The notes under the pieces: model-generated
What the model was told of the DNA's origin: nothing
Databases searched by the model: none
What the model saw: only the letters and a program-made list of their open reading frames with translations
Shown: one piece after another, positions 36,726 through 50,963 of the stretch
Position numbering within the stretch: position 1 is the stretch's first letter
Layout of the letters: each line of letters starts with the position of its first letter
Source of the DNA: Phycisphaerales bacterium
GTDB taxonomy: Bacteria > Planctomycetota > Phycisphaerae > Phycisphaerales > UBA1924
NCBI GenBank assembly: GCA_029260295.1
Contig: JAJDDN010000008.1
Coordinates: 558,001-622,000 of the forward strand
Direction: 5' to 3'
DNA length: 64,000 nt
Program-made: the position numbers and the translations under genes

Positions 36726-36739
36726 ATCCTGTGATAGCT

Positions 36740-36748: not shown

Positions 36749-36755
36749 GATCATC

Positions 36756-37973
36756 ATGGCAAAAAAGACAACAAAGAAAAAAGCAACTAAGAAGAAAGCC
36801 GCCAAGAAAGCGACTAAAAAAACTACATCAACTAGCGGGAATAGCCGTCGGCAACGGCGCGAGAAACCATTTCCTACGATGCCTCTCGAAGATGCTTTGC
36901 TGATCGCTTCTACTATTGAATCTGAAGCTGCAGGACAGCCGATGCGCCGTTTAACTTTGTTTGATACGCTGGGTAAATCACCTGACTCTGGACCAAGTAG
37001 ATCGTTAATTACTGCTTCAACTAAATACGGACTCACTACTGGAAGTTATACAGCTGCTGAACTCAAACTAACGGAGTTAGGCAAGAAGATTGTCTCCGAG
37101 CAATCTAGGCCAAGAATCCGAAAACAAGCAGAGTTTGACGCCGCAATTAGTGGCATTCAAGCCTTTAAATCTATCCATGAAAAATTTGTTAATGGAAAAT
37201 TGCCCAGTGAAAGTGTATTGCAAGATTTTCTTCGCGACACAAATGATATTCCTGATGATTTGGTCCAAGAGTGTATTGACACATTTGTCGTAAACGCCAA
37301 GCATGTCGGAATTTTGAAAGAAATTGCTGGAGCAGAACGACTCCTGCCAATTGATCACACTCTTGAAGAATTACCGGCACAAACATCGACTCAGATCAAC
37401 CCTTCGATTGAAATTACAGACAGTATTGATGCCGGCGAGAATGCCGACGCTACAGATAGTGCAATAACTGATTGGAATACCACTTGCTTTTATGTGACTC
37501 CAATTGGAGAGAAAGACAGCGATCTCAGGAGGCATTCTGATCTATTTTTGGAGCACATTGTCGAGCCTGCGCTATCCAAACTTAACATCAATGTTGTTCG
37601 CGCGGACAAAATCGGCAAGCCGGGCATGATCACAAAACGAGTCCTTGAATTTGTACTACGATCGCGTCTGGTTGTCGCTGATTTGTCTTTCCATAACCCC
37701 AATGTATTCTATGAATTATCATTGAGACATGCCTGTGGCCTGCCAGCAATTCAAATAATACGAGATAGAGATCGTATTCCGTTCGATTTAAAAGACTTCG
37801 ACACTATACAAATTGATGATTCTTCTGTCTACTCATTAATTCCTAAGCTTGAAGTTTATCGCTCCCAACTTGCCACGCAGGCCAGGGCAGCGATCGAAGA
37901 TGACGCGACAGTTGACAATCCGATACTAACATATTTCCCTAACTTGCAAGTCACCTTGCCGGGTGCCATGTAG
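36756..37973 (+). CDS. AT-rich gene: Lys-rich tail, helical DNA-binding-like region, TIR/deoxyribosyltransferase-like domain
   Basis: 405 residues from ATG 36756; an ATG nine bases earlier is in frame but falls inside the promoter spacer. Residues 1-28 are a Lys/Ala/Thr tail (MAKKTTKKKATKKKAAKKAT). Residues about 40-200 are helical with YGLTTGSYTAAELKLTELGK, winged-helix-like. Residues about 240-355 form one alpha/beta domain: CFYVTPIGEKDSDLRRHSD, INVVRADKIGKPGMI, LVVADLSFHNPNVFYELSLR and IPFDLKDFDTI. The DLSxxNPNVFYELxxRHA pattern belongs to a family related to nucleoside deoxyribosyltransferases and TIR domains, often seen in predicted immune effectors. One hand-counted line of 60 bases has 38% G+C against 53% in the mutase gene. 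Function is unknown; a nucleotide-processing effector is my best guess. Confidence 0.7.
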   Translation: MAKKTTKKKATKKKAAKKATKKTTSTSGNSRRQRREKPFPTMPLEDALLIASTIESEAAGQPMRRLTLFDTLGKSPDSGPSRSLITASTKYGLTTGSYTAAELKLTELGKKIVSEQSRPRIRKQAEFDAAISGIQAFKSIHEKFVNGKLPSESVLQDFLRDTNDIPDDLVQECIDTFVVNAKHVGILKEIAGAERLLPIDHTLEELPAQTSTQINPSIEITDSIDAGENADATDSAITDWNTTCFYVTPIGEKDSDLRRHSDLFLEHIVEPALSKLNINVVRADKIGKPGMITKRVLEFVLRSRLVVADLSFHNPNVFYELSLRHACGLPAIQIIRDRDRIPFDLKDFDTIQIDDSSVYSLIPKLEVYRSQLATQARAAIEDDATVDNPILTYFPNLQVTLPGAM

Positions 37974-37999
37974 GTGGCGTCTTCGCCTCCTGCATGTCT

Positions 38000-38563
38000 T
38001 CATCCCCCCATCGCCCCCCGAATCACCCCCGCAACCTCCTCCTTCCCATACCCCCCCTTGCAAGGCACATGCACAATCGGAATCCCCGCCGCCCCATACA
38101 CCGAATCCACAAACGCATCCCGCGCCTTAGCCTTCTTCGAGTTGTGCGACGAATCATCCAACTCAATCACACACATCACCCCCATATCCCCCGGCCGCAC
38201 CAGCACAAAATCCACATGCTTGGACTTAATCCGATTAAACGCCCGCTGATTCGTAGATCGATCCAGCCCCTTCTTCACCCCCACCAAATCCATCATCCCC
38301 ACCTTGCACATCACCACCGCCTGATCCGCCCCATTGGGATCCGTCGGATGCCGCAACGCCTCCCGCAGCACACGATAAAACACCAACTCCGCCTCAGTCA
38401 AAATCCCCTCACAGGCTTCATACAAATCCCCCGGCTCATCCCCCTCAACCCCCTCAACCACCAACTCCGAGTTCGAACTCTCCCCCGCATTCCGCTCCAA
38501 AACCTGCAAAACAAACCACATCCCAGAAACCAACAACACCATTATCACAATCGTCCAAACCAT
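38000..38563 (-). CDS. Membrane-anchored DUF2726 protein
   Basis: 187 residues from ATG 38563, with AAAGGGGA upstream. MVWTIVIMVLLVSGMWFVLQ is a single N-terminal membrane helix. The rest matches DUF2726: EAELVFYRVLREAL, VGMMDLVGVKKG, NRIKSKHVDFVLVRPGDMGV and VIELDDSSHNSKKAKARDAF. In this family the D..E/D-rich core resembles a restriction-endonuclease-like fold, so a nuclease or nucleic-acid role is possible. It converges with the TIR-like gene, 26 bases apart. No partner gene is evident. Confidence 0.8.
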   Translation of the reverse strand: MVWTIVIMVLLVSGMWFVLQVLERNAGESSNSELVVEGVEGDEPGDLYEACEGILTEAELVFYRVLREALRHPTDPNGADQAVVMCKVGMMDLVGVKKGLDRSTNQRAFNRIKSKHVDFVLVRPGDMGVMCVIELDDSSHNSKKAKARDAFVDSVYGAAGIPIVHVPCKGGYGKEEVAGVIRGAMGG

Positions 38564-38603
38564 AATGTCCCCTTTCAATAAACAGTATGATTTCATTATA
38601 CAT

Positions 38604-38632
38604 AAAAAACGGGCGTCCAAACAGACCGCCCG
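38604..38632 (-). terminator. Possible terminator upstream of the DUF2726 gene
   Basis: CGGGCG (38610-38615) pairs with CGCCCG (38627-38632), with an 11-base loop, and on the minus strand is followed by six T (38609-38604). It could insulate the DUF2726 gene from minus-strand transcription arriving from the PEP-CTERM gene. Confidence 0.45.
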
Positions 38633-38950
38633 CCACAGATTACCCCACGAGCTCTCAAACAACCGCCCGAGGCATAACCCGCTCTCTCCCTACCCTTCTC
38701 AAACACCTCTCTCAAGACCATCAAAATCTCTACACACCGATAGCCCGCAACCAAACCCCGCAGCGTCACAACAACACCGCACGCATCAGCTTCCTAATTC
38801 AATTTTAAGTTTCAATAGGGCCAACAAAGAACTCATCAACCCAAGACCCAAACACCACAGGCCTTCATCTACTCACACAACACTATCCGTACCGTGTTTC
38901 AACCGGTTCCAACCCCTGCCCCACAAGATCCATTCCCCCCACTACTCCAC
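38633..38950. other. Gene-free spacer
   Basis: 318 bases between two minus-strand terminators. No reading frame with coding character, start signal or known motif was found on either strand. It has a short AT-rich centre (AATTCAATTTTAAGTTTC at about 38798-38815). Confidence 0.55.
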
Positions 38951-38981
38951 AAAAAAACGGGCATCCCCAAAGGGACACCCG
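38951..38981 (-). terminator. Terminator of the PEP-CTERM gene at 39013
   Basis: CGGGCATCCC (38958-38967) pairs with GGGACACCCG (38972-38981), with two wobbles on the minus strand and a 4-base loop, followed there by seven T (38957-38951). Confidence 0.85.
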
Positions 38982-39012
38982 CAAGAATGCAGATCAAACG
39001 ATCATCAACAAC

Positions 39013-39552
39013 TCATCGTTTCCGACGAACCACCAAGAACCCACCAATCCCAAACAACGCCAACCCACCAGGCGTAGGAACCACCCGATCCATATTCAGC
39101 TCGCCAACAGCAAACGCCGGCGCACCAATCTGATCAAAGATCTCATAATCAATATCAACCGAATCCCCAAACGCAATCCCACGCAAGGTAATCAACGGAA
39201 AGAATCCGCCCGCAGCATCAGCAAGATCAATCGCAATATTCCCCGCAAGATCAACCCCGCCGCTCATCGTGCCAAACCCAGGATCAGCAAACGGATCAGC
39301 TACAAAGCCGGTCGCCCCAACACTCCCTGTAATCACAAACGCAGGCGGATCCGCCTGCCCAAACACATTCCCATCCAGATCAATCGTGATCGAAATATCA
39401 GCCCCCCCAAGACTCTCGATCAACATCGAAGCCGCCCCTGAAGAACCAAAGGTAAAGTTGTCCCATTGTCCTTCAAAGTCCCCTAGATTCAGTTGTGCCC
39501 CTGCAACCGCTGAACATCCCGCGATTGCGCCGATAGCTATGAGTGTGCGCAT
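39013..39552 (-). CDS. PEP-CTERM-like sorted extracellular protein
   Basis: 179 residues. MRTLIAIGAIAGCSAVAGAQ is a signal peptide, with GGAGA about nine bases before the ATG. The C-terminus VVPTPGGLALFGIGGFLVVR with a final RKR is a complete PEP-CTERM-like signal (VPTP, hydrophobic helix, basic end). The body is short, beta-rich and Gly/Asp-rich (DISITIDLDGNVFGQADPPA). It is expected at the cell surface after exosortase processing. The function is unknown. It has its own terminator and a 200-base upstream region shared with the divergent esterase gene. Confidence 0.8.
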   Translation of the reverse strand: MRTLIAIGAIAGCSAVAGAQLNLGDFEGQWDNFTFGSSGAASMLIESLGGADISITIDLDGNVFGQADPPAFVITGSVGATGFVADPFADPGFGTMSGGVDLAGNIAIDLADAAGGFFPLITLRGIAFGDSVDIDYEIFDQIGAPAFAVGELNMDRVVPTPGGLALFGIGGFLVVRRKR

Positions 39553-39754
39553 TGTGTGTCTCCATTAAGATTAGAAAGTCTGTCCATTAGAGAATCTGCC
39601 CCAGCTTTCATCCCCTCGCAACCAAAGTCCGAGATTCATCCACCCCAGCCTTCAAAAACGCCCCTTTCGATTCATCAGCCCATCTTTAACCCCAATTATT
39701 TTTGAAACCAAACCCCTCTTCGCGCGGTATATCTCTCACACAGGAGACCACTTC

Positions 39755-40753
39755 ATGCGCACAGTCCTCGCCATCCTCGCAATCGCCCTCACCATCACAA
39801 CAGCCCACGCCCAAACCGACAATCAACTCATCAACCGCTACGACAAATCCGTAACCGCCCAAAGCTACAAAGCCGCCCTCATCACCGCCCAGAAAATCAT
39901 CGAACGCTACCCAGAATCCGCCACCTGGAACTTCAACCTCGGCTCAATGCACGCACGCAACAACAACACCGACCAAGCCATCGAAGCCCTCCAAAAATCC
40001 GCCGACCTCGGATACACCGGCGTCCGCTCCTTCGAACAATCCGAAGACCTCGATTCACTCCGCCAAGACAAACGCTTCATCAAAACACTCAAGAATGTCC
40101 AGCAAAACGCCGCCAAACGACTCAACGAGTTCACCAAAGAAGCAAACGCCCACAAACCAAAGACACACATCCCGAAAACCATAACCGACTCCCCACCCCT
40201 CATCCTCGCGCTCCATGGCACAGGCATGCGAGGCACCGACATGATCAAAGCACTCAAAGACACCGCCGATGAACTCAACATGATCCTCATCGCCCCAGAC
40301 GCACTCCGCCCAGCCGCCAGCGGCGGCTTCTCATGGACCTACCGCGACGAATCCGAATGGATGGTCAACCACATAATCCAACAAGCAATAGAAAAACACA
40401 ACATCGACCCAACCCAAATCTACCTCGTCGGCTTCTCGCAGGGAGCCAACATCGCACTCATCATGGGACAAACATCCCCAGACCTCTTCGCCGGAGTCAT
40501 CCCAATCTGCGGCCACTACGAACCACAAAACGCATCCGCCGAAGAAAGCACAACACTCCCACCCTTCTACCTCATGACCGGCGTCAGAGACCCCTGGAAA
40601 AAAACCTACGCAAAAGCAAAGCGTGACTTCTCAAAGAACGAATCACCAGTCCAAGTCAAAATGCTCGCAGGCAAAGGCCACGAACTCCCCGCAGGAAAAT
40701 CAGGTACCAAAGAACTCGTCAAAGCAATCAAGTGGTGCAAATCCCAAGACTAA
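39755..40753 (+). CDS. Exported alpha/beta-hydrolase (esterase) with N-terminal TPR-like repeats
   Basis: 332 residues. AGGAGA precedes the ATG, and MRTVLAILAIALTITTAHAQ is a signal peptide. Residues 25-110 form two TPR-like helical pairs (YKAALITAQKIIERYPESAT and TDQAIEALQKSADLGY). From about 145 an alpha/beta-hydrolase follows: LILALHGTGMRGTDMI (oxyanion loop), LVGFSQGANIALIMG with the nucleophile Ser, TGVRDPWKKTYAK with the likely acid Asp, and LAGKGHELP with the His. It resembles carboxylesterase/feruloyl-esterase-type secreted hydrolases. The substrate is unknown. Its stop overlaps the convergent asnB stop by four bases. Confidence 0.85.
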   Translation: MRTVLAILAIALTITTAHAQTDNQLINRYDKSVTAQSYKAALITAQKIIERYPESATWNFNLGSMHARNNNTDQAIEALQKSADLGYTGVRSFEQSEDLDSLRQDKRFIKTLKNVQQNAAKRLNEFTKEANAHKPKTHIPKTITDSPPLILALHGTGMRGTDMIKALKDTADELNMILIAPDALRPAASGGFSWTYRDESEWMVNHIIQQAIEKHNIDPTQIYLVGFSQGANIALIMGQTSPDLFAGVIPICGHYEPQNASAEESTTLPPFYLMTGVRDPWKKTYAKAKRDFSKNESPVQVKMLAGKGHELPAGKSGTKELVKAIKWCKSQD

Positions 40754-42594
40754 GACAGAACGCCCGAATCCTCAGCCGACCCAGCAAACACCTCATCAAC
40801 CACCGCGCTATCACCCCACCAACGCTCACCCCAGATCGCCAAGTTCATCATCGGCCAAGTAAGATTCCAGTTCGACCCCGGATCCCCAACAACCGCATCA
40901 ATCGCCTCACCCCGGAAGATGTGCCGAGCAAACTCTGACCGGTTCAGCACATCAACCCGCCCCCCAATCCAATCCTGGAACGGCAGCGGAAAACTCGCCT
41001 TAGGCCGTTCAACAACCTCACCCGGAAGCCGATCCGCAAACGCCCGGCGCAACGCGATCTTCGTCTGCACCGGACTGCCATTGACAAACTTGTCATCCAT
41101 CTCAAGCGACTGAGCAAAGTCCGAAACCACCCGGTCCGCCAATGGCGTACGCCCCTCCACCGAACACAACATCGAAGCCGTATCAAGCCGCCGCAGCAAG
41201 TTCGGTAGGTTCATCCGCCTATGAAACGCCAGATGCGCCTGCATCGAACCAGAGCACCCAGCGCGGAGTTTATCAAACGACAACTGATACCACACCTTGA
41301 GCAGCGAATCCGAATCCGTCGCCCCCGCCCAATCCTCCTGCATAACCACAGGCTTCAGTTCATCGTTCACCCAAGCATTCGACTGCAGATGAAACAAACC
41401 CGCAGACAAATCCGAACTAGGAATATGATCAACATACGACTGCGCCTGAATCATCGGCAGCTCATACCCACCAAACAACTCATCGGCCCCCTCGCCAGAC
41501 AACGCCACCGCAAACCCACGCCCACGCAAAGCACTGCACACCTCATAGATCGCAACCTCATTGGGCGTTGACAAAGGCACCCCCGTCGCATCAACCATCC
41601 CACGCCACCGGTCCAAAAATCCAGCAGGACCAATCTCCACCTCCGTGTGATTAGTCCCAAGATACGCCGCAACCTTGGCCGCCATCTTAAAGTCGTCGGC
41701 AAACCCATCACTCCGCGCCCCCGCACAAAAAGTATGCAACTCTCCAAGCTGATCCATCGCGATCCGCGCGATGATCGAGCTGTCAATCCCGCCAGAAAGC
41801 AACGAGCACATCGGCACATCCGTACGAAGATGCCGAATGACCGAATCCTCGATCACCGACCGTGTATCAGCAATATCCGAAACGCACCCGATCCCGGCCC
41901 CGCTGCCCCCGCTGTCCCAGCACGAACAACTCTCCAAACATTCATAACGACTCGTCGAATACGACGCCCACTCCCCAGGCTCCAAAGCCGACACACCCTC
42001 AAACATCGTCCGCCGCCCAAACTCAGGCCGGATCGTCGACAAGTACGCGCTCATCGTGAGCAGATCAGGCTGAACATCGAACTTCGGATGCGCCAGCACC
42101 GCACGGATCTCTGAGGCAAACAACATCACCCCAGCCGCGCCGCCAGTCCGCGCCGTATACAAAGGCTTGATCCCCATCGAATCCCGCCCAAGCAAACACC
42201 GCCGCTGCGCTGTATCAACAAACCCAAACGCGTACATCCCCCGAAGCTTGTGCCGTGCCTCTACGCCCCATCGCACGAGCGCATGGAGCACCGTTTCAGA
42301 ATCGCACCGCGACCGAAAAACAACCCCGAGCGATTCGAGTTCCCGCCGAAGATCTTCATCGTTGTACAGTTCGCCGTTGTACACCAATGTGTACCGGCCA
42401 TCCTCGGTGCTCATCGGCTGGTGCCCATGCTCGCTCAAATCCACCACACTCAACCGCGTGTGCCCCAGCGTCCCGCACACCGTCGCCAATACCCCCGCAT
42501 CATCAGGCCCCCGATGCACCAACTGACGGCGCATCGCAAGCACATCTTGCCGATCTACCGGGAGTTCAGATATCACACCAACAATGCCGCACAT
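40750..42594 (-). CDS. asnB: Glutamine-hydrolysing asparagine synthetase
   Basis: 614 residues. ATG 42594 is the right start because it places the catalytic Cys directly after Met (MCGIVGVI), as the N-terminal glutaminase requires; a TTG two codons earlier is in frame. HRGPDDAGV, RLSVVDLSEHGHQPM and YNGELYND follow. The synthetase domain has SLLSGGIDSSIIARI (PP-loop) at about residue 267 and ALSGEGADELFGGY. It makes asparagine from aspartate, glutamine and ATP. The length and order are normal, though related enzymes act on other amide acceptors in surface polysaccharide loci. A TAGATT hexamer lies four bases upstream of the ATG and there is no Shine-Dalgarno. Confidence 0.92.
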   Translation of the reverse strand: MCGIVGVISELPVDRQDVLAMRRQLVHRGPDDAGVLATVCGTLGHTRLSVVDLSEHGHQPMSTEDGRYTLVYNGELYNDEDLRRELESLGVVFRSRCDSETVLHALVRWGVEARHKLRGMYAFGFVDTAQRRCLLGRDSMGIKPLYTARTGGAAGVMLFASEIRAVLAHPKFDVQPDLLTMSAYLSTIRPEFGRRTMFEGVSALEPGEWASYSTSRYECLESCSCWDSGGSGAGIGCVSDIADTRSVIEDSVIRHLRTDVPMCSLLSGGIDSSIIARIAMDQLGELHTFCAGARSDGFADDFKMAAKVAAYLGTNHTEVEIGPAGFLDRWRGMVDATGVPLSTPNEVAIYEVCSALRGRGFAVALSGEGADELFGGYELPMIQAQSYVDHIPSSDLSAGLFHLQSNAWVNDELKPVVMQEDWAGATDSDSLLKVWYQLSFDKLRAGCSGSMQAHLAFHRRMNLPNLLRRLDTASMLCSVEGRTPLADRVVSDFAQSLEMDDKFVNGSPVQTKIALRRAFADRLPGEVVERPKASFPLPFQDWIGGRVDVLNRSEFARHIFRGEAIDAVVGDPGSNWNLTWPMMNLAIWGERWWGDSAVVDEVFAGSAEDSGVLS

Positions 42595-42655
42595 GCCCAA
42601 TCTATCGGCACATTCATCGCCCCACCGTCAATTGCCCGCCCGCAGAGTGTAATTC

Positions 42656-43483
42656 TCAATCGTCCCCGGCCCCATCAAGATCATCAGGCTTGCACACCTT
42701 GCACGCTTTAAGCGAATCTTCGATCTCGTTCCGATCCTTGGCAATCCCAGAACCCCGTACATGCTGGCAATCCTTCGAGTGGTACTTCGAGCCAAACTCG
42801 GTCACATACACCATCGAAGATTCCACCGCCTGTTCGACTTCAACTTCTTCGGCAATCTCCTCAGGAACCTCAACGGCCCCGGCCCCATCGGTACTCACGA
42901 CATCGACCGCCGCCGGCTTAGGAACCGGAAGCCAAACACCCTTCCGGGCATCCCGCGCCCGATCCTGTGCCCAAAGCATCACCGAATCATTGAACCCCGA
43001 TGGATCTCGCGCATGCTTGGAAAAACCGAGCCGGACCATCTCAAGATTCACAAACAACCCATCAGGCATCCGGTACACATACCCCCGCCGATGCCCCCTC
43101 GGGTTGATCCCTCGCCTCGGATCGGTCATCACCGCCAGTTGTTCGCCGTCGAGAAGCGATTTCAGATAACTCCGCGCCTCAGCACTCCCCCTGAGAATGG
43201 CCGCCCCATCGCCTTTGCCGTCTTCGGTGAGTATGTCCGGCGAATCCGCACCGGCAAGCTCATACCGAACCACCGCACCCTGAACAAAGAGCTCAACAGA
43301 ATCCCCATCAATCACCCGGTGCAGCACCGCAGCCACCAGCCGATCCGCATCAGGCTCAATCACCCGAGGCATTGGCCGAGCCGCCGGCTCATCGCCTACT
43401 GCGACAGCCTGAGCAAAAAAAAGAACAGCGCCGAGCATCACCCGCCGCCGCCTCTTCCAAACTGACACCGACAACTCAATCAT
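42656..43483 (-). CDS. Exported thermonuclease-like (SNase) protein
   Basis: 275 residues. A signal-anchor-like start (RRRRVMLGAVLFFAQAVAVG) precedes an SNase fold: VLHRVIDGDSVELFVQG with the metal Asp, VRYELAGADSPDIL, EARSYLKSLLDGEQLAV, HRRGYVYRMPDGLFVNLEM and RLGFSKHAR. The C-terminal part has MVYVTEFGSKYHSKDCQHVR and LKACKVCKPDD, a small Cys/His motif (C, H, C, C) often attached to extracellular nucleases of this family. The usual catalytic Arg-Glu pair is only partly preserved, so activity is uncertain. It starts one base past the upstream gene's stop region (TAATGAATG), which indicates coupled translation. Confidence 0.8.
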   Translation of the reverse strand: MIELSVSVWKRRRRVMLGAVLFFAQAVAVGDEPAARPMPRVIEPDADRLVAAVLHRVIDGDSVELFVQGAVVRYELAGADSPDILTEDGKGDGAAILRGSAEARSYLKSLLDGEQLAVMTDPRRGINPRGHRRGYVYRMPDGLFVNLEMVRLGFSKHARDPSGFNDSVMLWAQDRARDARKGVWLPVPKPAAVDVVSTDGAGAVEVPEEIAEEVEVEQAVESSMVYVTEFGSKYHSKDCQHVRGSGIAKDRNEIEDSLKACKVCKPDDLDGAGDD

Positions 43484-43486
43484 TCA

Positions 43487-43930
43487 TTAGACCCACACAT
43501 TGACAATGAGGTTGGGTTCTTTGAGCTTGCCCGACCAGGTCCCCATCGAACTCGTCACCATCTTGACTTCGTACTCTGGGTGGTCATCGAGCCATTCGTT
43601 GATCTGACGATCAAGGAACTCAAGCGAGTCCCCAGTCAGCCGGCAGTGAAAGCTTTTGACATGAATCGCCCCGGTCCCGGTCGCATTGGGCGAGCGGGTC
43701 CACTGGTCTTCATGCCGTTTGGAGCTGAGCTTCTGCTCGAATGTTGTAATCTTGGACTGCCCCGGCTGAGCGGCGGGAACCGGCTCAGTCGAAAGATCGA
43801 TCGGCAGCGTGTCGTCAAGCCCAAGCTCGTTGGACTCATCATCAGGCGACTGCTCGACTGGCAAACTCTTTTTTTTCTTGACCGGCCCAGAATACCCAGG
43901 CGGCAATGGATCAAACAGTGGTCCCTGCAT
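43487..43930 (-). CDS. Conserved-looking protein of unknown function
   Basis: 147 residues. GAGGAGG lies nine bases before ATG 43930, a strong ribosome site, so the gene is real. The first 90 residues are polar and Pro/Ser-rich, with a KKKK cluster and no fold. The last 60 residues look folded: AIHVKSFHCRLTGDSLEFLD, NEWLDDHPEYEVKMVTSSMG and KLKEPNLIVNVWV. I do not recognise the family. The pattern of a C-terminal strand-helix-strand unit would fit a small ligand- or RNA-binding domain, but this is speculation. It is co-translated with the SNase gene downstream and is the second gene left of the putative origin. Confidence 0.7.
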   Translation of the reverse strand: MQGPLFDPLPPGYSGPVKKKKSLPVEQSPDDESNELGLDDTLPIDLSTEPVPAAQPGQSKITTFEQKLSSKRHEDQWTRSPNATGTGAIHVKSFHCRLTGDSLEFLDRQINEWLDDHPEYEVKMVTSSMGTWSGKLKEPNLIVNVWV

Positions 43931-43975
43931 CACGGAGAACCTCCTCATATTACTATTGTATCAAATATTGCTCCG

Positions 43976-44428
43976 TTATGCGAGCCCTATCTGATCACCG
44001 CGAAAACACCACCGATTCTGTGCGGTTTTTTCCCCAAAGTACCGCACAACCCATGGCTCATCATCAATTTCTTCCCAGCCAATCTGGATCACAAGTTTGC
44101 CCCCCTCAACATCCCCCCGGAACCCGCTGCAAACCCCGGAGGCCTTGCGGATTACATCCCCCCGCCCACCGCCGATATCGCCCTGAAAATCGAGGTAATG
44201 GGCCCGGTGATTGACCAATTGTTCCACGTGGAACAATTGGTCCGGGACCCACAAATCCGGCCGCTCACCGCACCTGAAGGTCAGGAGACGGTGTTCGTCT
44301 GGGCAGCCGGGGATTTCGATCATCCAATCGAAATGGCTTGTGGCGTCGCTGAGTGTGTGCTTGAGGATGACCGCGCGGGTGGGGTCGGGGATGGAATCCT
44401 TGGGTGGGTGTGGTGAATCGTTGGGCAT
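43976..44428 (-). CDS. Unknown conserved protein whose coding sequence contains parS
   Basis: 150 residues from ATG 44428. A longer frame to 44749 overlaps the opposite lipoprotein gene and is not favoured. Recognisable parts are AVILKHTLSDATSHFDWMIE, RLLTFRCGERPDLWV, HRAHYLDFQGDIGGGRGDVI and KLVIQIGWEEIDDE. The order 'H.L......HFDWMIE...LLTFR....HRAHYLD..G.ISGGRG' is one I associate with a small uncharacterised planctomycete/verrucomicrobial family, without a known function. Residues LFHVEQL are encoded by the 30-bp palindrome with the parS core, and base composition flips strand bias inside this gene. No Shine-Dalgarno is visible. Confidence 0.7.
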   Translation of the reverse strand: MPNDSPHPPKDSIPDPTRAVILKHTLSDATSHFDWMIEIPGCPDEHRLLTFRCGERPDLWVPDQLFHVEQLVNHRAHYLDFQGDIGGGRGDVIRKASGVCSGFRGDVEGGKLVIQIGWEEIDDEPWVVRYFGEKTAQNRWCFRGDQIGLA

Positions 44429-44470
44429 TGAGCTATATTCAATACAGACCACTACCTGGAGTCGAGCATG
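44150..44470. other. GC-skew switch point, candidate replication origin region
   Basis: Hand counts of 60-base lines on the + strand: 44101-44160 has 29 C and 11 G; 44161-44220 has 20 C and 15 G; 44221-44280 has 21 C and 16 G; 44281-44340 has 13 C and 20 G; 44341-44400 has 11 C and 28 G. Long C-rich sequence lies to the left for tens of kilobases and G-rich sequence to the right, whichever strand genes use. A C-to-G change is the pattern of an origin, and parS coincides. I found no clear cluster of DnaA boxes and no dnaA gene, so the exact initiation site is not located. Confidence 0.65.
44213..44242. promoter_or_regulatory. parS-type ParB binding site in a perfect 30-bp palindrome
   Basis: GACCAATTGTTCCAC (44213-44227) and GTGGAACAATTGGTC (44228-44242) are exact reverse complements. 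The central 16 bases (44220-44235) read TGTTCCACGTGGAACA, which fits the bacterial parS consensus TGTTnCACGTGnAACA. parS sites bind ParB and cluster near replication origins. This one lies within coding sequence, as many do. No second exact copy was noticed in the window. Confidence 0.85.
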
Positions 44471-45157
44471 TTCACGAGATCGATTTTTACACTGATTACA
44501 GTTTCCGTCGCCATTCTGCTGAGCTCTTGCGGGCCTACGCAGAAAGTGAAGCGGACCTTTGCCCTCAATGATTTGTCTCTCAAGGCACGAGCGGCGGCTC
44601 GGGATGGGGATGACCAGCGGTCGTTGGAGCTTTGGCAGGAGTATGTTGTGCGGCGGCCGCATGCTCATTATGCTCAGTATGAGCTTGGGGTGACCGAATC
44701 TCGGATGGGGATGTACTCTGCGGCGATCGGGCATCTGACGACTGCTCACGATCTTCGGCCTGGGAATGTTGAATACATTGAGACGCTGGGCGATACCTTT
44801 ATTTTGGCTGGACGGGCCGAGAAAATGATGTCGCTGATGCGGGGGACGGTTGCTGAGGGCGGGAAAGTTTCTGGGCAGTTGCGGCTCGGCCGGTATGCCC
44901 AGAGTGTGGGGATGCTCGATGAGGCGAAGCAGGCGATTGGTTTGGCGATGATGTATTCCAATGGGGAATCGGTTGAGCCATATATGGCTATGGCTGATTT
45001 CGCCCGGGCTATTGGGGATTCAGTGCTCGAAGAGGATTCACTGAGAAAGGCGTTGTGGTTCGATACGGGCTCCGATAACCTTGATTCTCGATTCCTCGCC
45101 CTTGGTATTACTCCTGGGCCGTCGCTGGCGATAAACCCCTCTGAGGATCAGGATTAA
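44468..45157 (+). CDS. TPR-repeat lipoprotein
   Basis: 229 residues; GGAGT lies before the ATG. SIFTLITVSVAILLSSC is a lipoprotein signal with an LSSC lipobox. The mature part has TPR-like helical pairs: LSLKARAAARDGDDQRSLEL, AHYAQYELGVTESRMGMYSA and NVEYIETLGDTFILAGRAEK, then further repeats to residue 200. It is probably anchored on a periplasmic membrane face and mediates protein contacts; no specific role can be given. It is the first gene on the G-rich side of the skew switch and points away from it. Confidence 0.8.
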   Translation: MFTRSIFTLITVSVAILLSSCGPTQKVKRTFALNDLSLKARAAARDGDDQRSLELWQEYVVRRPHAHYAQYELGVTESRMGMYSAAIGHLTTAHDLRPGNVEYIETLGDTFILAGRAEKMMSLMRGTVAEGGKVSGQLRLGRYAQSVGMLDEAKQAIGLAMMYSNGESVEPYMAMADFARAIGDSVLEEDSLRKALWFDTGSDNLDSRFLALGITPGPSLAINPSEDQD

Positions 45158-45214
45158 GGGTTTATTGAGATTTATTGCTGAATTGTTTGACGAAATCGGA
45201 ATGAGCCGCTAGTC

Positions 45215-45236
45215 TATATCCGTATATGCGGATATA
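45215..45236 (+). promoter_or_regulatory. Operator-like inverted repeat of the ArsR-methyltransferase gene
   Basis: TATATCCG (45215-45222) and CGGATATA (45229-45236) form a perfect inverted repeat around a six-base spacer, just seven bases before ATG 45243. ArsR-family repressors bind palindromes of this size. Its overlap with AT-rich -10-like sequence and the start suggests autorepression. Confidence 0.6.
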
Positions 45237-45242
45237 TGGCTT

Positions 45243-46229
45243 ATGGCAAAACCAACACACACTCCATCTCAACTAACTGCTGCTGAATCTTTGAGCCAGC
45301 TGAGTGACCCGATCCGGCTCCGGATGATGCGGGTGCTTTGCACGCATGAGCTTTCTGTGGGCGAGTTGATTCGGGTGGTTCAGATTCCTCAGTCTTCGGG
45401 CTCACGGCATTTGAAGCTGCTTGCTGAGGGCGGCTGGGTTGTTCGGCGGTCTGTTGGGCCTGCGACTTTTTACAGGGTGGTGCTTGATGATTTGCCTGCG
45501 ACGATGCGGGGGATTTGGCTTGCGGTTCGCGATGAGCTTGACGGGCTTGCTGATGCGCAGGGGGATGACCAGCGGGTGCGGTCGGTGTTGTCTGAACGGA
45601 TGACTGATTCGGGCGCGTTCTTTGGGGAGCACGCGGGTGAGTGGGACGGGGTTCGGAATGACATGTTTGGGCGGTTCTTTACGGACCGTGCGCTGCTGAG
45701 TTTGATTGATCCGCGGTGGCGGGTGGCGGATCTTGGGTGCGGGACGGGGAACTGCACGGAACTGCTTGCGCCTTGGGTTGAGCGGGTTGTGGCGATTGAT
45801 CGTTCGCCTGAGATGCTTGAGGGGGCACGGGCGAGGCTTGAGAATGCGAGCATCGAGAGCAGCCATATTGACTTTGTTGTCGGGGATTTATCGAAGGTTC
45901 CGTTGGCAGCAGGCAGTGTAGATGCGGCGGTGTGCATGCTTGTGATTCATCATATTGATGAGCCTGTGGAAGCACTCAAGGAGATCCGGCGGGTGCTGAC
46001 ATCTGAGCGTGGGGGCGGGGTTGTGCTGCTTGTTGATATGTGCGAGCATACGAATGATGAGTACCGGCGGGGGATGGGGCATAAGCATTTGGGGTTCTCG
46101 AATCAGGCGGTTATCGGAATGTTGGGGGAGGCCGGTTTTGGATCGATTCGGGTGAATAACTTACGGCCTGATGTGAACTCATCTGGGCCCCCACTCTTTG
46201 CCGCGGTGGCGAGGGTTTTGAACGAATAA
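45243..46229 (+). CDS. ArsR-type regulator fused to a SAM-dependent methyltransferase
   Basis: 328 residues. Residues 10-90 are an ArsR/SmtB winged helix (LSQLSDPIRLRMMRVLCTHE, SVGELIRVVQIPQSSGSRHL, KLLAEGGWVVRRSVG) with no obvious metal-binding Cys pair in the recognition helix. Residues 140-320 are a class I methyltransferase: VADLGCGTGNCTELLAPW (SAM loop), VVAIDRSPEMLEGAR and DAAVCMLVIHHIDEPVEALK. The neighbours ahcY and metF belong to the methionine cycle, and ArsR-like regulators responding to S-adenosylhomocysteine (SahR) control such genes elsewhere. I infer that this protein senses SAM or SAH through the methyltransferase fold. The palindrome upstream supports autoregulation. Confidence 0.88.
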   Translation: MAKPTHTPSQLTAAESLSQLSDPIRLRMMRVLCTHELSVGELIRVVQIPQSSGSRHLKLLAEGGWVVRRSVGPATFYRVVLDDLPATMRGIWLAVRDELDGLADAQGDDQRVRSVLSERMTDSGAFFGEHAGEWDGVRNDMFGRFFTDRALLSLIDPRWRVADLGCGTGNCTELLAPWVERVVAIDRSPEMLEGARARLENASIESSHIDFVVGDLSKVPLAAGSVDAAVCMLVIHHIDEPVEALKEIRRVLTSERGGGVVLLVDMCEHTNDEYRRGMGHKHLGFSNQAVIGMLGEAGFGSIRVNNLRPDVNSSGPPLFAAVARVLNE

Positions 46230-46270
46230 TTGGCGCGGAATTGACGCGAAGAGAGACGACAGACTAAGAA

Positions 46271-46290
46271 ATCGGTGTCTCAACACCGAT
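46271..46290 (+). other. Stem-loop in the ahcY leader
   Basis: ATCGGTGT (46271-46278) and ACACCGAT (46283-46290) form a perfect 8-bp stem with loop CTCA, 26 bases before the ahcY ATG. It has no T tract and does not resemble the SAH riboswitch. It could stabilise the mRNA or bind a regulator. Confidence 0.45.
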
Positions 46291-46316
46291 ACAAGGAATA
46301 ACAAAAGGAATCACCA

Positions 46317-47813
46317 ATGACAGCAACAGCAACGACACCGTCTTTGACAGCAGACACGATTAACGGGCTTGATTTCAAGGTTTTGGACCTTGGTCTTGCG
46401 GAACACGGCCGGAAGGAGCTTCGGCTCGCAGAACATGAGATGCCTGGTTTGATGTCGCTCCGTGCTCAATACGGGGAGAGCAAGCCGCTCAAGGGTTTGA
46501 AGATCATGGGCTCGCTGCATATGACTGTGCAGACGGCGGTGCTTATTGAAACTCTGACCGCGCTTGGCGCCAATGTGCGTTGGTGCTCTTGCAATATTTT
46601 CTCAACGCAGGACTTTGCGGCTGCGGCGGTGGTTGTCGGGCGCACCGAGGACGGCGGGACACCTGAGAATCCTAAGGGCGTTCCTGTGTTTGCTTGGAAG
46701 GGCGAGACACTTGAAGAGTACTGGTGGTGCACCAAGCAGGCGCTCACCTACCCAGACGGATCCGGCCCTGAGCAGATTGTTGATGACGGCGGCGACGCTT
46801 CGTTGTTCATGATCAACGGGATGGATTACGAGAACTCGGGTAGTGTTCCTGTTTGGGACGAACAGAATGATGCTGAGGAATGGAAGCATGTGCTTGCGAC
46901 AATCCGCGGGACAATCGAGGGGAATCCTGGTTGGTTCCAGAAGAACACGCCTTTGATTCGTGGTATCTCTGAAGAGACCACGACTGGCGTGCACCGTTTG
47001 TACCAGCTCGCTGCAGAGGGCAAGCTGCCTTTCCCGGCGATCAATGTGAACGACTCGGTGACCAAGTCGAAGTTTGACAATGTGTACGGCTGCCGGCACT
47101 CGCTTGTTGACGGCCTGAACCGGGCATCTGATGTGATGCTTTCGGGCAAGGTTGCTGTTGTGTGTGGCTACGGCGATGTTGGCAAGGGCTGCTGCCAGTC
47201 GCTTAAGGGTCAGGGATGTCGCGTGATTGTCACCGAGATTGATCCGATCTGTGCTTTGCAGGCGGCGATGGAGGGCTACCAGGTCCTTACACTCGAAGAC
47301 GCTGTTGAGTATGCGGATATCTTTGTGACCACGACTGGGAACAAGGACATCATCACGCTTGAGCACATGAAGCGGATGAAGAACAAGGCGATCGTGGGGA
47401 ACATTGGTCACTTTGACAATGAGATCCAGATGGAGCCTTTGATGAAGGATGCGGATGTTGAGCGGATCAACATCAAGCCACAGTTTGACGAGTTCCTGTT
47501 CAAGTCCAAGGGCACGAGTATCTTGATTCTTGCTGAGGGTCGTTTGCTGAACCTTGGCTGCGCGACTGGTCACCCGAGTTTTGTGATGAGCGCGAGCTTT
47601 ACGAACCAGGTGATCGCTCAGGTTGAGCTTGCTGGGAACCTTGAGAAGTATGACAACTCGGTGCATGTGCTTCCTAAGCATCTTGACGAGCAGGTTGCTC
47701 GTTTGCATCTTGGTCAGCTTGGTGTCAAGCTGACGAAGTTGACTGATGATCAGTCGAAGTATTTGGATATTCCTGTGGACGGGCCTTACAAGCCGCACCA
47801 CTACCGGTACTAA
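46317..47813 (+). CDS. ahcY: S-adenosylhomocysteine hydrolase
   Basis: 498 residues, with AAAAGGA upstream. It is the long form of the enzyme, carrying the extra segment around [20 protein letters not shown] in the catalytic domain that short forms (about 430) lack. [37 protein letters not shown] and [19 protein letters not shown] (NAD site) are diagnostic; [19 protein letters not shown] holds the substrate His, and the end [20 protein letters not shown] with HHYRY is the conserved tail. It splits SAH into adenosine and homocysteine, removing the inhibitor of methyltransferases. It is followed by a terminator and metF. Confidence 0.97.
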
Positions 47814-47824
47814 AGTTATTTATG

Positions 47825-47858
47825 ATCGCCGTCTCGAAAGGGGCGGCGATTGTTTTTT
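47825..47858 (+). terminator. Terminator/attenuator between ahcY and metF
   Basis: ATCGCCGTCTC (47825-47835) and GGGGCGGCGAT (47840-47850) pair over 11 bp with two wobbles and a GAAA tetraloop, followed by TGTTTTTT that runs into the metF ATG (47859). It ends ahcY transcripts. Because the right arm contains the only G-rich ribosome-site candidate of metF, it could also control metF. Confidence 0.8.
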
Positions 47859-48791
47859 ATGATCCGCAAACTGCTTGATTCTGGTACTACTTTTTCGTTT
47901 GAGTTCTTTCCGCCTAAAGATGCGGCGGGGGCCGAGCGTTTGTTTGAGAATATTGTGAAACTTGAGAGCCTAGGGCCTTCGTTTGTTTCGATTACTTATG
48001 GCGCTGGCGGGGGGACACGAAAGCTGACGCGGGATGTTGTGCACCGGGTGAAGGATCAGACCGGGCTTGCGACGATGCCTCATTTGACTTGTGTTGGTCA
48101 TAGCGAGGCGGAGATCAATGAGATCCTTGAGGGGTATGCGGAGCGGGGGATTAGTGATATTTTGGCGTTGCGAGGGGATGCGCCGTCGGATGGGTATGAC
48201 TGGTCGGGGGATCACTTTCAGTTCGCGTCGCAGCTTGTTGAGCACATTGTGAAGTTTAATGAACGGCACAAGAGTTCGAGTGCTGGGGGGTTTGGGGGGT
48301 TTGATATTGGGGTCGCTGGTTTTCCCGAGGGGCATCCTGGGACTGCAAATCGGCTCGATGAGATGAATCATCTGAAGGCGAAGGTTGATGCGGGGGCGGG
48401 GTTTGTGGTGACGCAGATGTTCTTTGAGAACCGGGACTACTTTGATTTTTGTGATCGGTGCGTGCTTGGGGGCATCAAAGTGCCTGTGGTGGCGGGGATT
48501 ATGCCTGTGCAGTCGATTCCGGGGATGAAACGGATGGCGGATCTTGCGCTGGGGATGCGGTTCCCCGCTTCGCTGCTGCGCGCGGTTCGGCGGACTGATG
48601 GAAAGAGTGAATCGGTCCGGCGGGTGGGTGTGCACTGGGCGACGGAGCAGAGCCGGGATCTTTTGGATCATGGGGCTTGCGGGATTCATTTTTATACTTT
48701 GAATCAGTCGGATGCGACGGTGAAGATTTATCAGTCGCTTGGGGTTTCGAACTCGAGCCAGCTTGCTGATGGTCCGACGCTGGATTTTTAA
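47859..48791 (+). CDS. metF: 5,10-methylenetetrahydrofolate reductase
   Basis: 310 residues from ATG 47859; a TTG three codons earlier is in frame. FSFEFFPPKDAAGAERLFEN carries the active-site Glu, SITYGAGGGTRKLTRDV and PHLTCVGHSEAEINEIL are the FAD-binding strands, LALRGDAPSDGYDW the nucleotide loop and VVTQMFFENRDYFDF the substrate region. It reduces methylene-THF to methyl-THF for methionine synthesis, in line with the neighbouring ahcY. Translation may depend on the hairpin that ends at its start codon. Confidence 0.95.
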   Translation: MIRKLLDSGTTFSFEFFPPKDAAGAERLFENIVKLESLGPSFVSITYGAGGGTRKLTRDVVHRVKDQTGLATMPHLTCVGHSEAEINEILEGYAERGISDILALRGDAPSDGYDWSGDHFQFASQLVEHIVKFNERHKSSSAGGFGGFDIGVAGFPEGHPGTANRLDEMNHLKAKVDAGAGFVVTQMFFENRDYFDFCDRCVLGGIKVPVVAGIMPVQSIPGMKRMADLALGMRFPASLLRAVRRTDGKSESVRRVGVHWATEQSRDLLDHGACGIHFYTLNQSDATVKIYQSLGVSNSSQLADGPTLDF

Positions 48792-48801
48792 GACCGGCCA
48801 C

Positions 48802-49491
48802 TTAAGACTTGATCGCGTCGATGAGTTTATTGAATAGGTTTTGGCCGAGGTTTTGGTCTTCGGTTCGTTCTGGGTGCCATTGGATTCCTAGGCGGAACTT
48901 TGCGGCGGGGTCGTGGATGGCTTCGATGATGCCGTCGGGTGCGGTGGCGAGGATTTGGTAGGTTCCGGGGTTGTCTACGGCTTGGTGGTGGGCGGAGAAG
49001 GATGTGCCACTGGGGAGGATTGATTCGTTGTTGGAGATGATGGGGTGTTGTTTTTTCCAGTGGTCGGCGTGGGATGGGTGGGTGTCTGGGAGGTATTGGT
49101 TGAGGGAGCCGCCTGTGGAGAGGGCGAGCATTTGCATGCCTAGGCAGATACAAAGGACTGGGATATGGGGGTTGTTGTGGAGTTCTTTGATGAGCTGTGT
49201 TTCGAATGTTTGGCGGGCAGCTAGGACAGGGGTGATTTCTTGATGGGAGGGGATGCCGAAGGGTTCGGTTTTGGGGTCGTCTCCGCCTGAGAGGATGAAG
49301 GCGTCGAAGCGGGTGATGAGGGTGGCGATGGTGTCTGGATCGGGCGTGGTTGGGGGGAGGATGACGGGGATGGCTCCGGCGTTGTGGACTGCCTTGGCGT
49401 AGGTCATGGTGAGGTAGGCGGTGGGATGATCTTTACGGATCATGAGGTCCGAGGTGATGGCGACGAGGGGTTTGGGTGATGTGGCAGGCAT
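48802..49491 (-). CDS. Class I glutamine amidotransferase-like hydrolase (peptidase C26 / PuuD-like)
   Basis: 229 residues. FDAFILSGGDDPKTEPFG is the oxyanion strand, IPVLCICLGMQMLALSTGGS carries the nucleophile Cys, and FRLGIQWHPERTEDQNLG carries the His-Pro-Glu end of the triad. VAITSDLMIRKDHPTAYLTM at the start matches gamma-glutamyl-GABA hydrolase-type members. It probably hydrolyses a gamma-glutamyl amide in the cytoplasm. It converges with metF, ten bases apart, and is divergent from the DUF4340 gene. No ribosome site is obvious. Confidence 0.87.
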   Translation of the reverse strand: MPATSPKPLVAITSDLMIRKDHPTAYLTMTYAKAVHNAGAIPVILPPTTPDPDTIATLITRFDAFILSGGDDPKTEPFGIPSHQEITPVLAARQTFETQLIKELHNNPHIPVLCICLGMQMLALSTGGSLNQYLPDTHPSHADHWKKQHPIISNNESILPSGTSFSAHHQAVDNPGTYQILATAPDGIIEAIHDPAAKFRLGIQWHPERTEDQNLGQNLFNKLIDAIKS

Positions 49492-49552
49492 GTTGGTTGA
49501 ATGTCGGTTGTTTTGGGCGGGCGGGGAGAGGATTGGTCGAATAGAGTGTGGT

Positions 49553-50950
49553 ATGTCTTTGAGAACTGTATTGATGTCGCTGATTGTTGCTGGGGTGCTG
49601 GCGGGGCTTGTGCTGGTCTCTGGGAGCGTAGGAGGGCATGCGGGTGATGATCCCGATTTGAAAGCTCACCAGATCGGCATTGATGGGGTATCGATTGTTG
49701 AGGTTCGAATTGAGACCGAGGAACTGGGTTTGCAGATTGCTCGGCGGGTGGAGGGGACGGTTGATGGGTGGGAGTTGCAGCTGAGCGATGACGAGAAGGA
49801 TGTTTGGGGTGGGAACTCGGCGCGGATTCGGACGGTGCTTCGGGTGCTTGGGTCGGCGCCGGTTGGGGTTTCGGATGATGATGAGATCGGGGATCTCTTT
49901 GGGACGCTGGCGGTTGTTGATCACGACGGCCTATCGACTGAGATCCGGTTTGGGACTGAGGCTGCGGGTGGGTTTGTCCGGGCGGAGGTTGTTTCGCGGG
50001 GGCTTGATGGGATCGCGACGAGCCGATGGTTTGGGCGGATTGAGCGTTCGCTTCGGGATTCGCTCTTGGCTGAGGGGCTGGAGTCTTGGCGGGCTACGGG
50101 GTTGTTTGATTTTACGATGTCGCAGGTGTTTGGGGCGGAGGTTACGGCTGGGGATACACATGTTGGGCTACGGAGAACGGGGGATGGGTGGCGTGTTGTT
50201 GAGCCTTGGTCTGTTGGGGCTGACTCTGCGATGGTGCAGTCGATGCTTGGGCTGAGCCTTGGGCTTGAGGCGGAGCGGTTTTATGATTCGTCTGTGTATA
50301 CGGATGACCTGACTGGCCTTGAATCGCCGATGGCTCGGATTCGTATTTCTGGACGCGAAACTGGTATTCCATCTGGGGCGGTGATTGAGATCGGGGCGGC
50401 GGTTGACACTTCTGGGTCTGAAATATTTGCCCGGTACAGCGTAGATGGTGGAAACCCTGTGCTTGTGGCGATCAAGACCGAGGGGCTCAATCAGTTGATA
50501 CCGGCACCGCTGGCGTATGTGCATCAGACAGCGGGCGTGATGATGCGGGCTGATGTTGCAACGCTACGGATACTTGGTCCTGACGGGGATGAGCGGTTTG
50601 CGTGCGAACCCCGGCTTGATTCATGGATAGCTGACGGGATCGCGGTAACGCCGACCCAGGGGGAAGCGATCGAACGATTGATCGGGGTGGTGACGGCGGA
50701 GCGGGCGAACAATATCTTTGTTCGCGGAATTAACGACGAGTCTTCGGAGGCTGAGGTCGGAGCGATCGAGTTGATCGATCGGAATGGGAATATGGTGGTG
50801 TATCAGGTTTCGCTTGAAGGCGGCGACCAGGGGATCCAGCTGCATCTTTCGCGCGATATGGGCGGCGGGACAACGCTGGTGTGGGTGTGCGGCTCTGCGG
50901 AGGCTGCTGGAAGCGGGGCCTGGATGACGGCGCTGATCGCTTGGGACTGA
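49553..50950 (+). CDS. Membrane-anchored DUF4340-like protein
   Basis: 465 residues from ATG 49553. MSLRTVLMSLIVAGVLAGLV is one membrane helix. The periplasmic-side part repeats the scheme of DUF4340: GTVDGWELQLSDDEKDVWGG then RTVLRVLGSAPVG, and again LRRTGDGWRVVEPWSVGADS then MVQSMLGLSLGLEAERFYD, so each half pairs a beta-strand unit with a helix. Such proteins occur beside gliding or ABC-type exporter genes, but no such partner is here. TAGAGT ends five bases before the ATG without a Shine-Dalgarno. An upstream frame to 49442 overlaps the divergent gene and is rejected. Confidence 0.7.
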   Translation: MSLRTVLMSLIVAGVLAGLVLVSGSVGGHAGDDPDLKAHQIGIDGVSIVEVRIETEELGLQIARRVEGTVDGWELQLSDDEKDVWGGNSARIRTVLRVLGSAPVGVSDDDEIGDLFGTLAVVDHDGLSTEIRFGTEAAGGFVRAEVVSRGLDGIATSRWFGRIERSLRDSLLAEGLESWRATGLFDFTMSQVFGAEVTAGDTHVGLRRTGDGWRVVEPWSVGADSAMVQSMLGLSLGLEAERFYDSSVYTDDLTGLESPMARIRISGRETGIPSGAVIEIGAAVDTSGSEIFARYSVDGGNPVLVAIKTEGLNQLIPAPLAYVHQTAGVMMRADVATLRILGPDGDERFACEPRLDSWIADGIAVTPTQGEAIERLIGVVTAERANNIFVRGINDESSEAEVGAIELIDRNGNMVVYQVSLEGGDQGIQLHLSRDMGGGTTLVWVCGSAEAAGSGAWMTALIAWD

Positions 50951-50963
50951 GTTTTTAAAGGTA

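What the first reader, a model, noticed from the sequence alone, without database searches (positions are those of the whole stretch)
44100..44470. Likely chromosomal origin region: sharp C-to-G strand switch at a perfect parS palindrome inside a gene
The + strand is C-rich to the left and G-rich to the right whichever strand genes use. Hand counts change from 29 C/11 G (44101-44160) to 11 C/28 G (44341-44400), and the turn lies at the palindrome 44213-44242 with core TGTTCCACGTGGAACA. A C-to-G change is the direction expected at an origin, and parS sites cluster at origins. It is unusual that the switch falls inside a 150-residue gene, within about 100 bases of parS, and that no dnaA gene or DnaA-box cluster is next to it.
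Basis: partly seen in the sequence, partly recalled or inferred. Interest (0 to 1): 0.88.

Follow-up and report, generated by a model that had tools for sequence, protein, structure and literature searches.

The report
Bacterial chromosome with many replication origins?
This site looks like one of about a dozen DNA replication start points on a single bacterial chromosome, most of them carrying the bacterium's chromosome-segregation tag, although bacterial chromosomes are thought to have just one start point.

Summary
In detail: an exact parS (44220-44235) in a 30-bp perfect palindrome sits about 50 bp from a sharp C-to-G skew switch (minimum 44274). "The chromosomal origin" is too small a reading. 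The genome (a Phycisphaerales bacterium, 2.91 Mb, 8 contigs) has 10 exact parS at 9 places, and all 9 lie within 0.8 kb of such a switch; contig C8 alone has three. Sampled skew (46% of the genome) is a sawtooth: sharp rises, each followed by a slow, roughly linear fall over 86-338 kb, and no sharp fall anywhere sampled. In human DNA this N shape is read as many origins with scattered termination. Three further firm switches lack parS. Skew follows the side of the switch, not gene strand. Same-genus species with the same gene order have the window's switch only where parS is present (3 of 3 with, 0 of 8 without). The pattern recurs in same-genus genomes and another genus, but not wherever parS occurs. 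Best reading: a multi-origin bacterial chromosome with a ParB centromere at most origins. No replication was measured; the initiator is unknown.

The parts
44213..44242 (.). 30-bp perfect palindrome containing parS
44220..44235 (.). parS core TGTTCCACGTGGAACA (ParB-binding consensus, recalled), 0 mismatches
44274..44275 (.). C-to-G skew step: cumulative minimum of the window and fitted step; proposed centre of bidirectional initiation
43976..44428 (-). 150-aa gene of unknown function that holds parS in a variable loop (QLFHVEQL); homologues at the same place in the 11 relatives compared (10 same-genus, 1 other genus)
   Evidence: no Pfam match
1..44274 (.). C-rich flank, part of the domain C8:263.6-602.2 kb in which skew falls from about +0.35 to -0.23
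44275..62000 (.). G-rich flank, start of the domain C8:602.2-872.4 kb
44468..45157 (+). TPR-like gene, first gene right of the step; with the minus-strand parS gene it forms a divergent pair
   Evidence: TPR_2, below the curated cut-off
46317..47813 (+). S-adenosylhomocysteine hydrolase gene, used as anchor for the comparison between species

Best explanation
The site is one of about a dozen bidirectional replication origins on this bacterium's chromosome (roughly one per 240 kb). Forks leave each origin both ways; the leading strand gains G and T, which gives the C-to-G step. Neighbouring forks meet at variable places between origins, which gives the slow, roughly linear decline. As domains fall by a similar total whether 86 or 338 kb long, each origin should fire in most cell cycles. 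Nine of the twelve firm steps carry a parS within 0.8 kb; ParB there would segregate the newly copied origin and load SMC. Shown: parS, steps, sawtooth, joint presence of parS and step at the window locus across species, recurrence in relatives. Inferred: that the steps are active origins, and the role of ParB. Unknown: the initiator.
For: (1) 9 of 9 exact-parS places on a C-to-G step, fitted offsets +48 to -799 bp (search limited to 3 kb either side). A scan of 2,259 positions in the sampled stretches finds contrast of 0.35 or more at nine places, exactly these nine, and no fall beyond -0.29 (stretches were partly chosen at parS, and the parS-less steps lie too near stretch ends to score). 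(2) Sawtooth: in seven domains bounded by two firm steps (86-338 kb) r is -0.86 to -0.94 and slope x length -0.51 to -0.77. (3) GC and AT skew anticorrelated, r=-0.86 over 615 bins, the G+T leading-strand signature (recalled). (4) Homology-supported ORFs at eight of the nine loci (n=65): GC3 skew left -0.70 (+ strand)/-0.57 (-), right +0.59/+0.70; 33 of 65 point away from the step; intergenic -0.30/+0.28 over nine loci. (5) Same genus: G062 8 of 8 testable places, steps within 1.03 kb of parS, and repeated sign changes along a 1.43-Mb contig; G003 8 of 8 long loci, one with a 0.5-kb right flank. (6) Another genus, G117: 12 of 13 places examined rise by 0.27-0.65. (7) At the window locus the same genes in the same order have opposite GC3 skew on the two sides in the 3 species with parS, and not in the 8 same-genus species without it. 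(8) 7 of 9 places have a parS at the orthologous place in G062; the step there was testable and present at 6.
Against: No replication was measured. Three firm steps have no parS-like sequence, nor has one in G015. Some parS lack a step: C5:25053 (one mismatch; the identical sequence at the orthologous place in G062 has one), G117 C19:47371, and G077's places; G098 is weak, as are the par loci of G009 and G024. Outside the genus, one parS locus in each of 20 genomes gave contrasts of -0.09 to +0.22 in 19. No DnaA-box cluster, consistent AT-rich element or other motif common to all steps; dnaA is at no step; two DnaA genes occur in outgroups too. Skew records past, not present, fork direction.
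Confidence: 0.72

Rival explanations
1. One active origin at a time: the origin moved often in evolution, or each cell uses only one of many sites, and the steps record past or alternative use.
For: Step positions do turn over between species; some parS have no step.
Against: If one site fired per cycle, each step would be a small part of the amplitude and matching sharp falls would lie elsewhere. Instead domains swing by a similar total whatever their length and no fall beyond -0.29 was found in the sampled 46%. At 6 of 9 places both parS and step are shared with a species whose ParB is 59% identical.
Confidence: 0.1
2. The steps are made not by origins but by something loaded at parS (ParB, SMC) that travels both ways and biases mutation or repair by strand.
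For: Tight link of parS and step, joint presence at the window locus.
Against: Steps of similar size without parS (three firm ones here, one in G015) and parS without a step. SMC is not known to expose single strands (recalled). The decline spans the whole interval between steps, as fork meeting predicts.
Confidence: 0.1
3. Inversions or translocations of a chromosome with one origin.
For: Some synteny breakpoints lie near parS: L239, L214, L246, and the right flanks at C6:488 and C8:872 are not shared with G062.
Against: Gene order and orientation across the window switch are collinear in relatives without the switch, whose same genes show no change of GC3 skew there; both flanks are shared with G062 at four other places. 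Inversions would also give sharp downward steps and flat blocks, not slow declines.
Confidence: 0.03
4. Assembly artefact: contigs misjoined at repeated parS palindromes.
For: parS palindromes of 16-30 bp are repeated, and several contig ends lie near steps.
Against: Both flanks of four of the nine places match single loci of an independent assembly (G062), and the window's flanks are collinear with those of G017 and other relatives. Fitted steps lie up to 0.8 kb from parS. For the other four places joins were not confirmed on both sides.
Confidence: 0.02
5. Transcription or codon bias from divergent gene blocks.
For: At the window the step lies beside a divergent gene pair.
Against: Skew follows side, not strand, also in intergenic DNA; 33 of 65 homology-supported ORFs, or 70 of 158 ORFs by length alone, point away from the step.
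Confidence: 0.02

Closest known systems
Human skew N-domains (Baker et al. 2012, PMC3320577; passages read)
   Same: Two abrupt upward skew jumps bounding a segment of linear decline; read as origins at the borders and a gradient of fork polarity.
   Different: There megabase-sized and linked to open chromatin; here 0.09-0.4 Mb, in a bacterium, with parS at most borders.
Multi-origin archaeal chromosomes such as Sulfolobus (passages in Xia 2012, PMC3269012)
   Same: Several origins on one prokaryotic chromosome, several skew minima.
   Different: Sulfolobus has three origins, tied to Orc1/Cdc6 (recalled); here about a dozen, in a genome with bacterial DnaA and ParB. Orc1/Cdc6 was not searched for.
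Proposed multiple origins in bacteria (Gao 2015, PMC4403523, whole text; Xia 2012, passages)
   Same: In silico suggestion that a bacterial chromosome may have more than one origin.
   Different: Gao: two sites per chromosome next to dnaA, parB or hemE with DnaA boxes; Xia: several skew changes in a few endosymbionts and others. In what I read neither reports a repeated marker, a uniform sawtooth, or gain and loss between species.
Natural Vibrio cholerae strains with a single, fused chromosome (PMC5603330; start of abstract in the listing)
   Same: A natural bacterial chromosome that can hold two origins (recalled).
   Different: Two origins of different type from a fusion of two replicons (recalled), not a dozen alike sites.
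Chromosomal ParABS with origin-proximal parS (recalled; search listings)
   Same: Same 16-bp parS, one ParB gene beside a parS cluster on a skew step.
   Different: parS are normally clustered in one origin region (recalled); here they are spread over five contigs, one place per step.

Membership tests
Chromosomal ParABS partition system | ParB with ParB_N and HTH_ParB domains | tested here: met
   one match to TIGR00180; ParB_N, HTH_ParB and ParB_C present
Chromosomal ParABS partition system | parS near ParB | tested here: met
   three parS (two exact, one with a mismatch) within about 1 kb of the ParB ORF
Chromosomal ParABS partition system | parS confined to one origin region | tested here: not met
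   eight of nine exact-parS places are on other contigs than ParB or 280 kb from it
Chromosomal ParABS partition system | ParA partner | tested here: inconclusive
   no ParA among the 8 ORFs of L010 scanned; rest of the genome not searched
DnaA-type bacterial oriC | skew switch from C-rich to G-rich | tested here: met
DnaA-type bacterial oriC | cluster of DnaA boxes | tested here: not met
   (E. coli-type consensus only; a lineage-specific box is not excluded)
DnaA-type bacterial oriC | AT-rich unwinding element | tested here: inconclusive
   richest 60 bp within 1.5 kb of the window step is 65% AT; 55-78% over 13 sites, two of them 77-78%
DnaA-type bacterial oriC | dnaA beside it | tested here: not met
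   dnaA genes at C6:382.8 kb and C5:82.5 kb, not at a step
Multi-origin chromosome with N-shaped skew domains | several upward jumps on one contiguous molecule | tested here: met
   three on C8, four on C2, two on C6, two on C4
Multi-origin chromosome with N-shaped skew domains | roughly linear decline between jumps with a sign change | tested here: met
   r -0.86 to -0.94 in seven domains bounded by two firm steps; the zero crossing is off-centre in some
Multi-origin chromosome with N-shaped skew domains | replication initiates at the jumps in living cells | not testable with these tools
   needs replication profiling

The most novel reading that the evidence does not exclude
In this lineage the centromere makes or recruits the origin: a parS arising by small changes inside an ordinary gene, as in the loop of the window's 150-aa gene, creates a new replication origin without DnaA boxes, so ParB has taken over origin choice and a bacterium has evolved a eukaryote-like program of many stochastic origins, most with their own centromere.
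Probability: 0.2. Interest if true: 0.98.

Novelty: new variant of a known kind. Interest (0 to 1): 0.9.

Why it matters
One origin per chromosome is treated as the norm for bacteria; [quoted passage not shown] fused Vibrio chromosomes are a later partial exception, recalled). A natural bacterial chromosome with about a dozen origins, most paired with a centromere, would break that norm, would show how a bacterium keeps segregation in step with many initiations, and would give a small-genome model for stochastic origin firing. Related species with the same genes in the same order, differing in whether a given place has parS and a step, make the question 'what creates an origin' directly testable.

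Tried and rejected
Rejected: a single chromosomal origin at the window; inversion; misassembly; transcription bias; chance. On chance: 10 exact copies of a 16-mer against 0 for the reversed pattern; but with up to 2 mismatches the reversed control gave 11 matches against 12, so only exact and one-mismatch sites are used. Contrast at the nine places is 0.24-0.79 against a sampled mean of 0.03 and 95th percentile of 0.28; that sample contains the steps themselves, and one place, C8:872, is below the percentile because its step is 0.8 kb left of parS. DnaA duplication as the innovation: two DnaA in all 9 genomes tested, outgroups included.

Led nowhere: DnaA boxes, a motif shared by all steps. 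A second motif (TTTGTGCGCACRGATGTGG...) lies within about 160 bp of parS at 5 of 9 G000, 4 of 9 G062 and 5 of 8 G003 places, but not at the window nor at parS-less steps. Its PWM was built from 13 of these 14 instances, so those scores are circular; less circular are the k-mer enrichment in three species (G003 had only the G000 background) and 16 one-mismatch hits in 1.09 Mb of background. Complete outgroup G066: ten 12-kb samples with skew near zero, so it says nothing on its origin number.

Weak points in counts. ORFs were picked by length and some are wrong (at the window it took a plus-strand ORF over the real gene); redid it with homology-supported ORFs. A fourth parS-less step, C6:2.4 kb, is doubtful: only 2.4 kb lie to its left, and C3's end, which is G-rich, overlaps C6's start by 131 bp. 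C4:176.0 has 0.7 kb to its right, but C4's end overlaps C5's start, which is G-rich. L214 and L241 end 0.1 and 0.5 kb right of parS; L214 is left out of the G062 count. Of G003's 12 places 8 were fetched long, C25 and C28 short and C91 as L166, all with a rise; C32 was not. G117 13 of 20 places examined, G098 5 of 7, G100 3 of 7, G077 3 of 5. At the window locus 10 of the 20 other same-genus genomes were compared. Smaller rises (C6:329-345, C7:203-219, C8:416-434 kb) were not resolved.

Literature: ten searches in the held open-access library, no preprints; no listed title or start of abstract told of a natural bacterium with many origins marked by parS.

Full report
What was checked. The window is G000:C8:558001-622000 of a 2.91-Mb, 8-contig genome. 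G006, labelled same genus, has the same parS coordinates and contig length as G062, the genome of JASBRY010000009 (Phycisphaerales bacterium BWSM_120), so this is a Phycisphaerales bacterium (Planctomycetota). Its own name was not given.

Many parS. Exact TGTTCCACGTGGAACA occurs 10 times at 9 places on five contigs; two one-mismatch sites exist besides, one within the par cluster and one at C5:25053. The only ParB match is at C6:486.9 kb, beside the cluster of three.

Every exact place is on a switch. With 8-kb flanks (5 kb right of C6:488) skew is -0.23 to -0.35 left and +0.17 to +0.44 right. A step fitted within 3 kb of parS falls at +121, +74, -574, -299, +317, +386, +175, +48 (window) and -799 bp. 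Scanned without reference to parS, the sampled stretches have contrast of 0.35 or more (3-kb flanks) at nine places only, and these are the nine; the deepest fall is -0.29. The stretches were partly chosen at parS, and the parS-less steps lie too near stretch ends to score there.

The genome is a sawtooth. Stretches covering 46% of the genome show skew rising sharply at each place and falling slowly until the next. In seven domains bounded by two firm steps (86-338 kb) r is -0.86 to -0.94 and slope times length -0.51 to -0.77; contig C7 (405 kb, no parS) gives r -0.85 and -0.55, C6:2-208 kb r -0.75 and -0.47; three stretches that start at a contig end fit more poorly (r -0.53 to -0.76). Three steps without parS are firm: C2:85.2, C2:427.1 and C4:176.0 kb (the last 0.7 kb from the contig end, but C5's start overlaps that end and is G-rich); a fourth, C6:2.4 kb, is doubtful. 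No sequence within three mismatches of parS lies within 2 kb of them, as far as sequence was in hand. That makes twelve firm steps.

It is strand composition, not genes. Among 65 homology-supported ORFs at eight loci GC3 skew is -0.70/-0.57 (plus/minus strand) on the left and +0.59/+0.70 on the right, and 33 of 65 point away from the step. ORFs picked by length alone agree (side 0.515, strand -0.094; 70 of 158), as does intergenic DNA (-0.30/+0.28). GC and AT skew are anticorrelated, r=-0.86.

Relatives. In G062 8 of 8 testable parS places and in G003 8 of 8 fetched long are on steps; in G024, another genus, 3 of 3 single places but weaker, one poorly placed, and no rise at its parS pair on C44. 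Among shorter same-genus loci G004 2 of 2, G019 4 of 4 (one a one-mismatch site) and G017 2 of 2 examined rise by 0.26 or more; G009 and G005, one site each, by only 0.10 and 0.08. In G117 (genus g61) 12 of 13 places examined rise by 0.27-0.65; its parS have a different extension (G-run...C-run, against AATT in G000), so the sets look independent. G100: 3 places, +0.05 to +0.28; G098: 5 places, +0.01 to +0.12; G077: 3 places, -0.15 to +0.16. One locus in each of 20 genomes outside the genus: 19 between -0.09 and +0.22, and G023 +0.48 with a 0.27-kb left flank. Exact parS was found in 64 of 145 family genomes, 10 with five or more copies, and in 100 of 247 class genomes, 9 with five or more.

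A natural experiment at the window. The neighbourhood asnB - nuclease-like - hypothetical - parS gene - TPR - methyltransferase - SAHH - MTHFR keeps its order in the ten same-genus relatives read (some have extra DNA between genes, two stretches are short). parS lies in a variable loop of the 150-aa protein. G000, G019 and G017 (one mismatch) have parS and a step about 2.1 kb left of SAHH; G004, G006, G003, G013, G012, G002 and G009 have neither; G015 has no parS, and its step is 7 kb left of SAHH. GC3 skew left/right: -0.49/+0.53, -0.20/+0.41, -0.64/+0.47 with parS; +0.08/-0.06, +0.09/+0.07, -0.27/-0.41, -0.32/-0.37, +0.04/-0.06, +0.45/+0.27, +0.33/+0.40 and (G015) +0.55/+0.46 without. So fork direction, not gene order, seems to have changed. 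By contrast 7 of 9 G000 places have a parS at the orthologous place in G062 (6 with a testable step): both flanks match at four, the left flank only at C4:40, C6:488 and C8:872.

What does not fit. At C5:25053 this genome keeps the same one-mismatch parS that in G062 (L210) sits on a step, without the step: parS is not sufficient. It may be replicated passively from the step at the C4/C5 junction 25 kb away (inference). The parS-less steps show parS is not necessary. G003 steps L238, L242 and L244 map to places in G000 without a sampled step. dnaA is at no step and no DnaA-box cluster was found.

Mechanism. Similar swings in short and long domains suggest that most forks reverse at most steps in most cycles; the slow decline suggests scattered meeting points. 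This is the reading given to human N-domains (PMC3320577, passages). ParB at most origins would move sister origins apart and load SMC (recalled). Whether ParB also helps to initiate is open. Xia 2012 warned that several polarity changes alone do not prove several origins (passages); the repeated marker, the uniform swing and the between-species comparison go beyond that, but a replication measurement is missing.

Noticed in passing
L005, L007, L009, L011, L012 (G000); L211-L213, L215 (G062); L238, L240-L242, L244 (G003): A second conserved motif, TTTGTGCGCACRGATGTGG, lies within about 160 bp of parS at about half of the parS steps (often 24-27 bp to the right); it is not in a consistent coding frame. 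Possible initiator or cofactor site.
   Followed up: partly
G117 loci L280-L294: parS in this genome is mostly extended to G-run...parS...C-run palindromes, unlike AATTG-parS-CAATT in the window genome: lineage-specific extensions.
   Followed up: no
G000 contigs C4 end/C5 start, C3 end/C6 start, C6 end, C7 both ends: Several contig ends lie at or within a few kb of skew steps; C4 end and C5 start share about 160 bp, C3 end and C6 start 131 bp (98%), suggesting joins.
   Followed up: partly
L239, L214, L246; right flanks of L010 and L012: Synteny breakpoints between species fall close to parS steps, in some cases with the two flanks mapping near two different steps of G000, as if recombination joins origins.
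   Followed up: partly
L013:9993 (G000:C5:25053): One-mismatch parS conserved with G062 L210 but without a skew step: a possibly silenced or passively replicated origin.
   Followed up: yes
G000 genome-wide: The parS pattern has 10 exact and 2 one-mismatch matches but no two-mismatch match, while the reversed control has 11 within two mismatches: near-parS sequences may be avoided.
   Followed up: no
G000:C6:382.8 kb and C5:82.5 kb: Two DnaA genes in this genome and in all 9 genomes tested, outgroups included.
   Followed up: partly
L010:1531-14238: No ParA among the 8 ORFs scanned around ParB; its divergent neighbour is a NUDIX protein.
   Followed up: no
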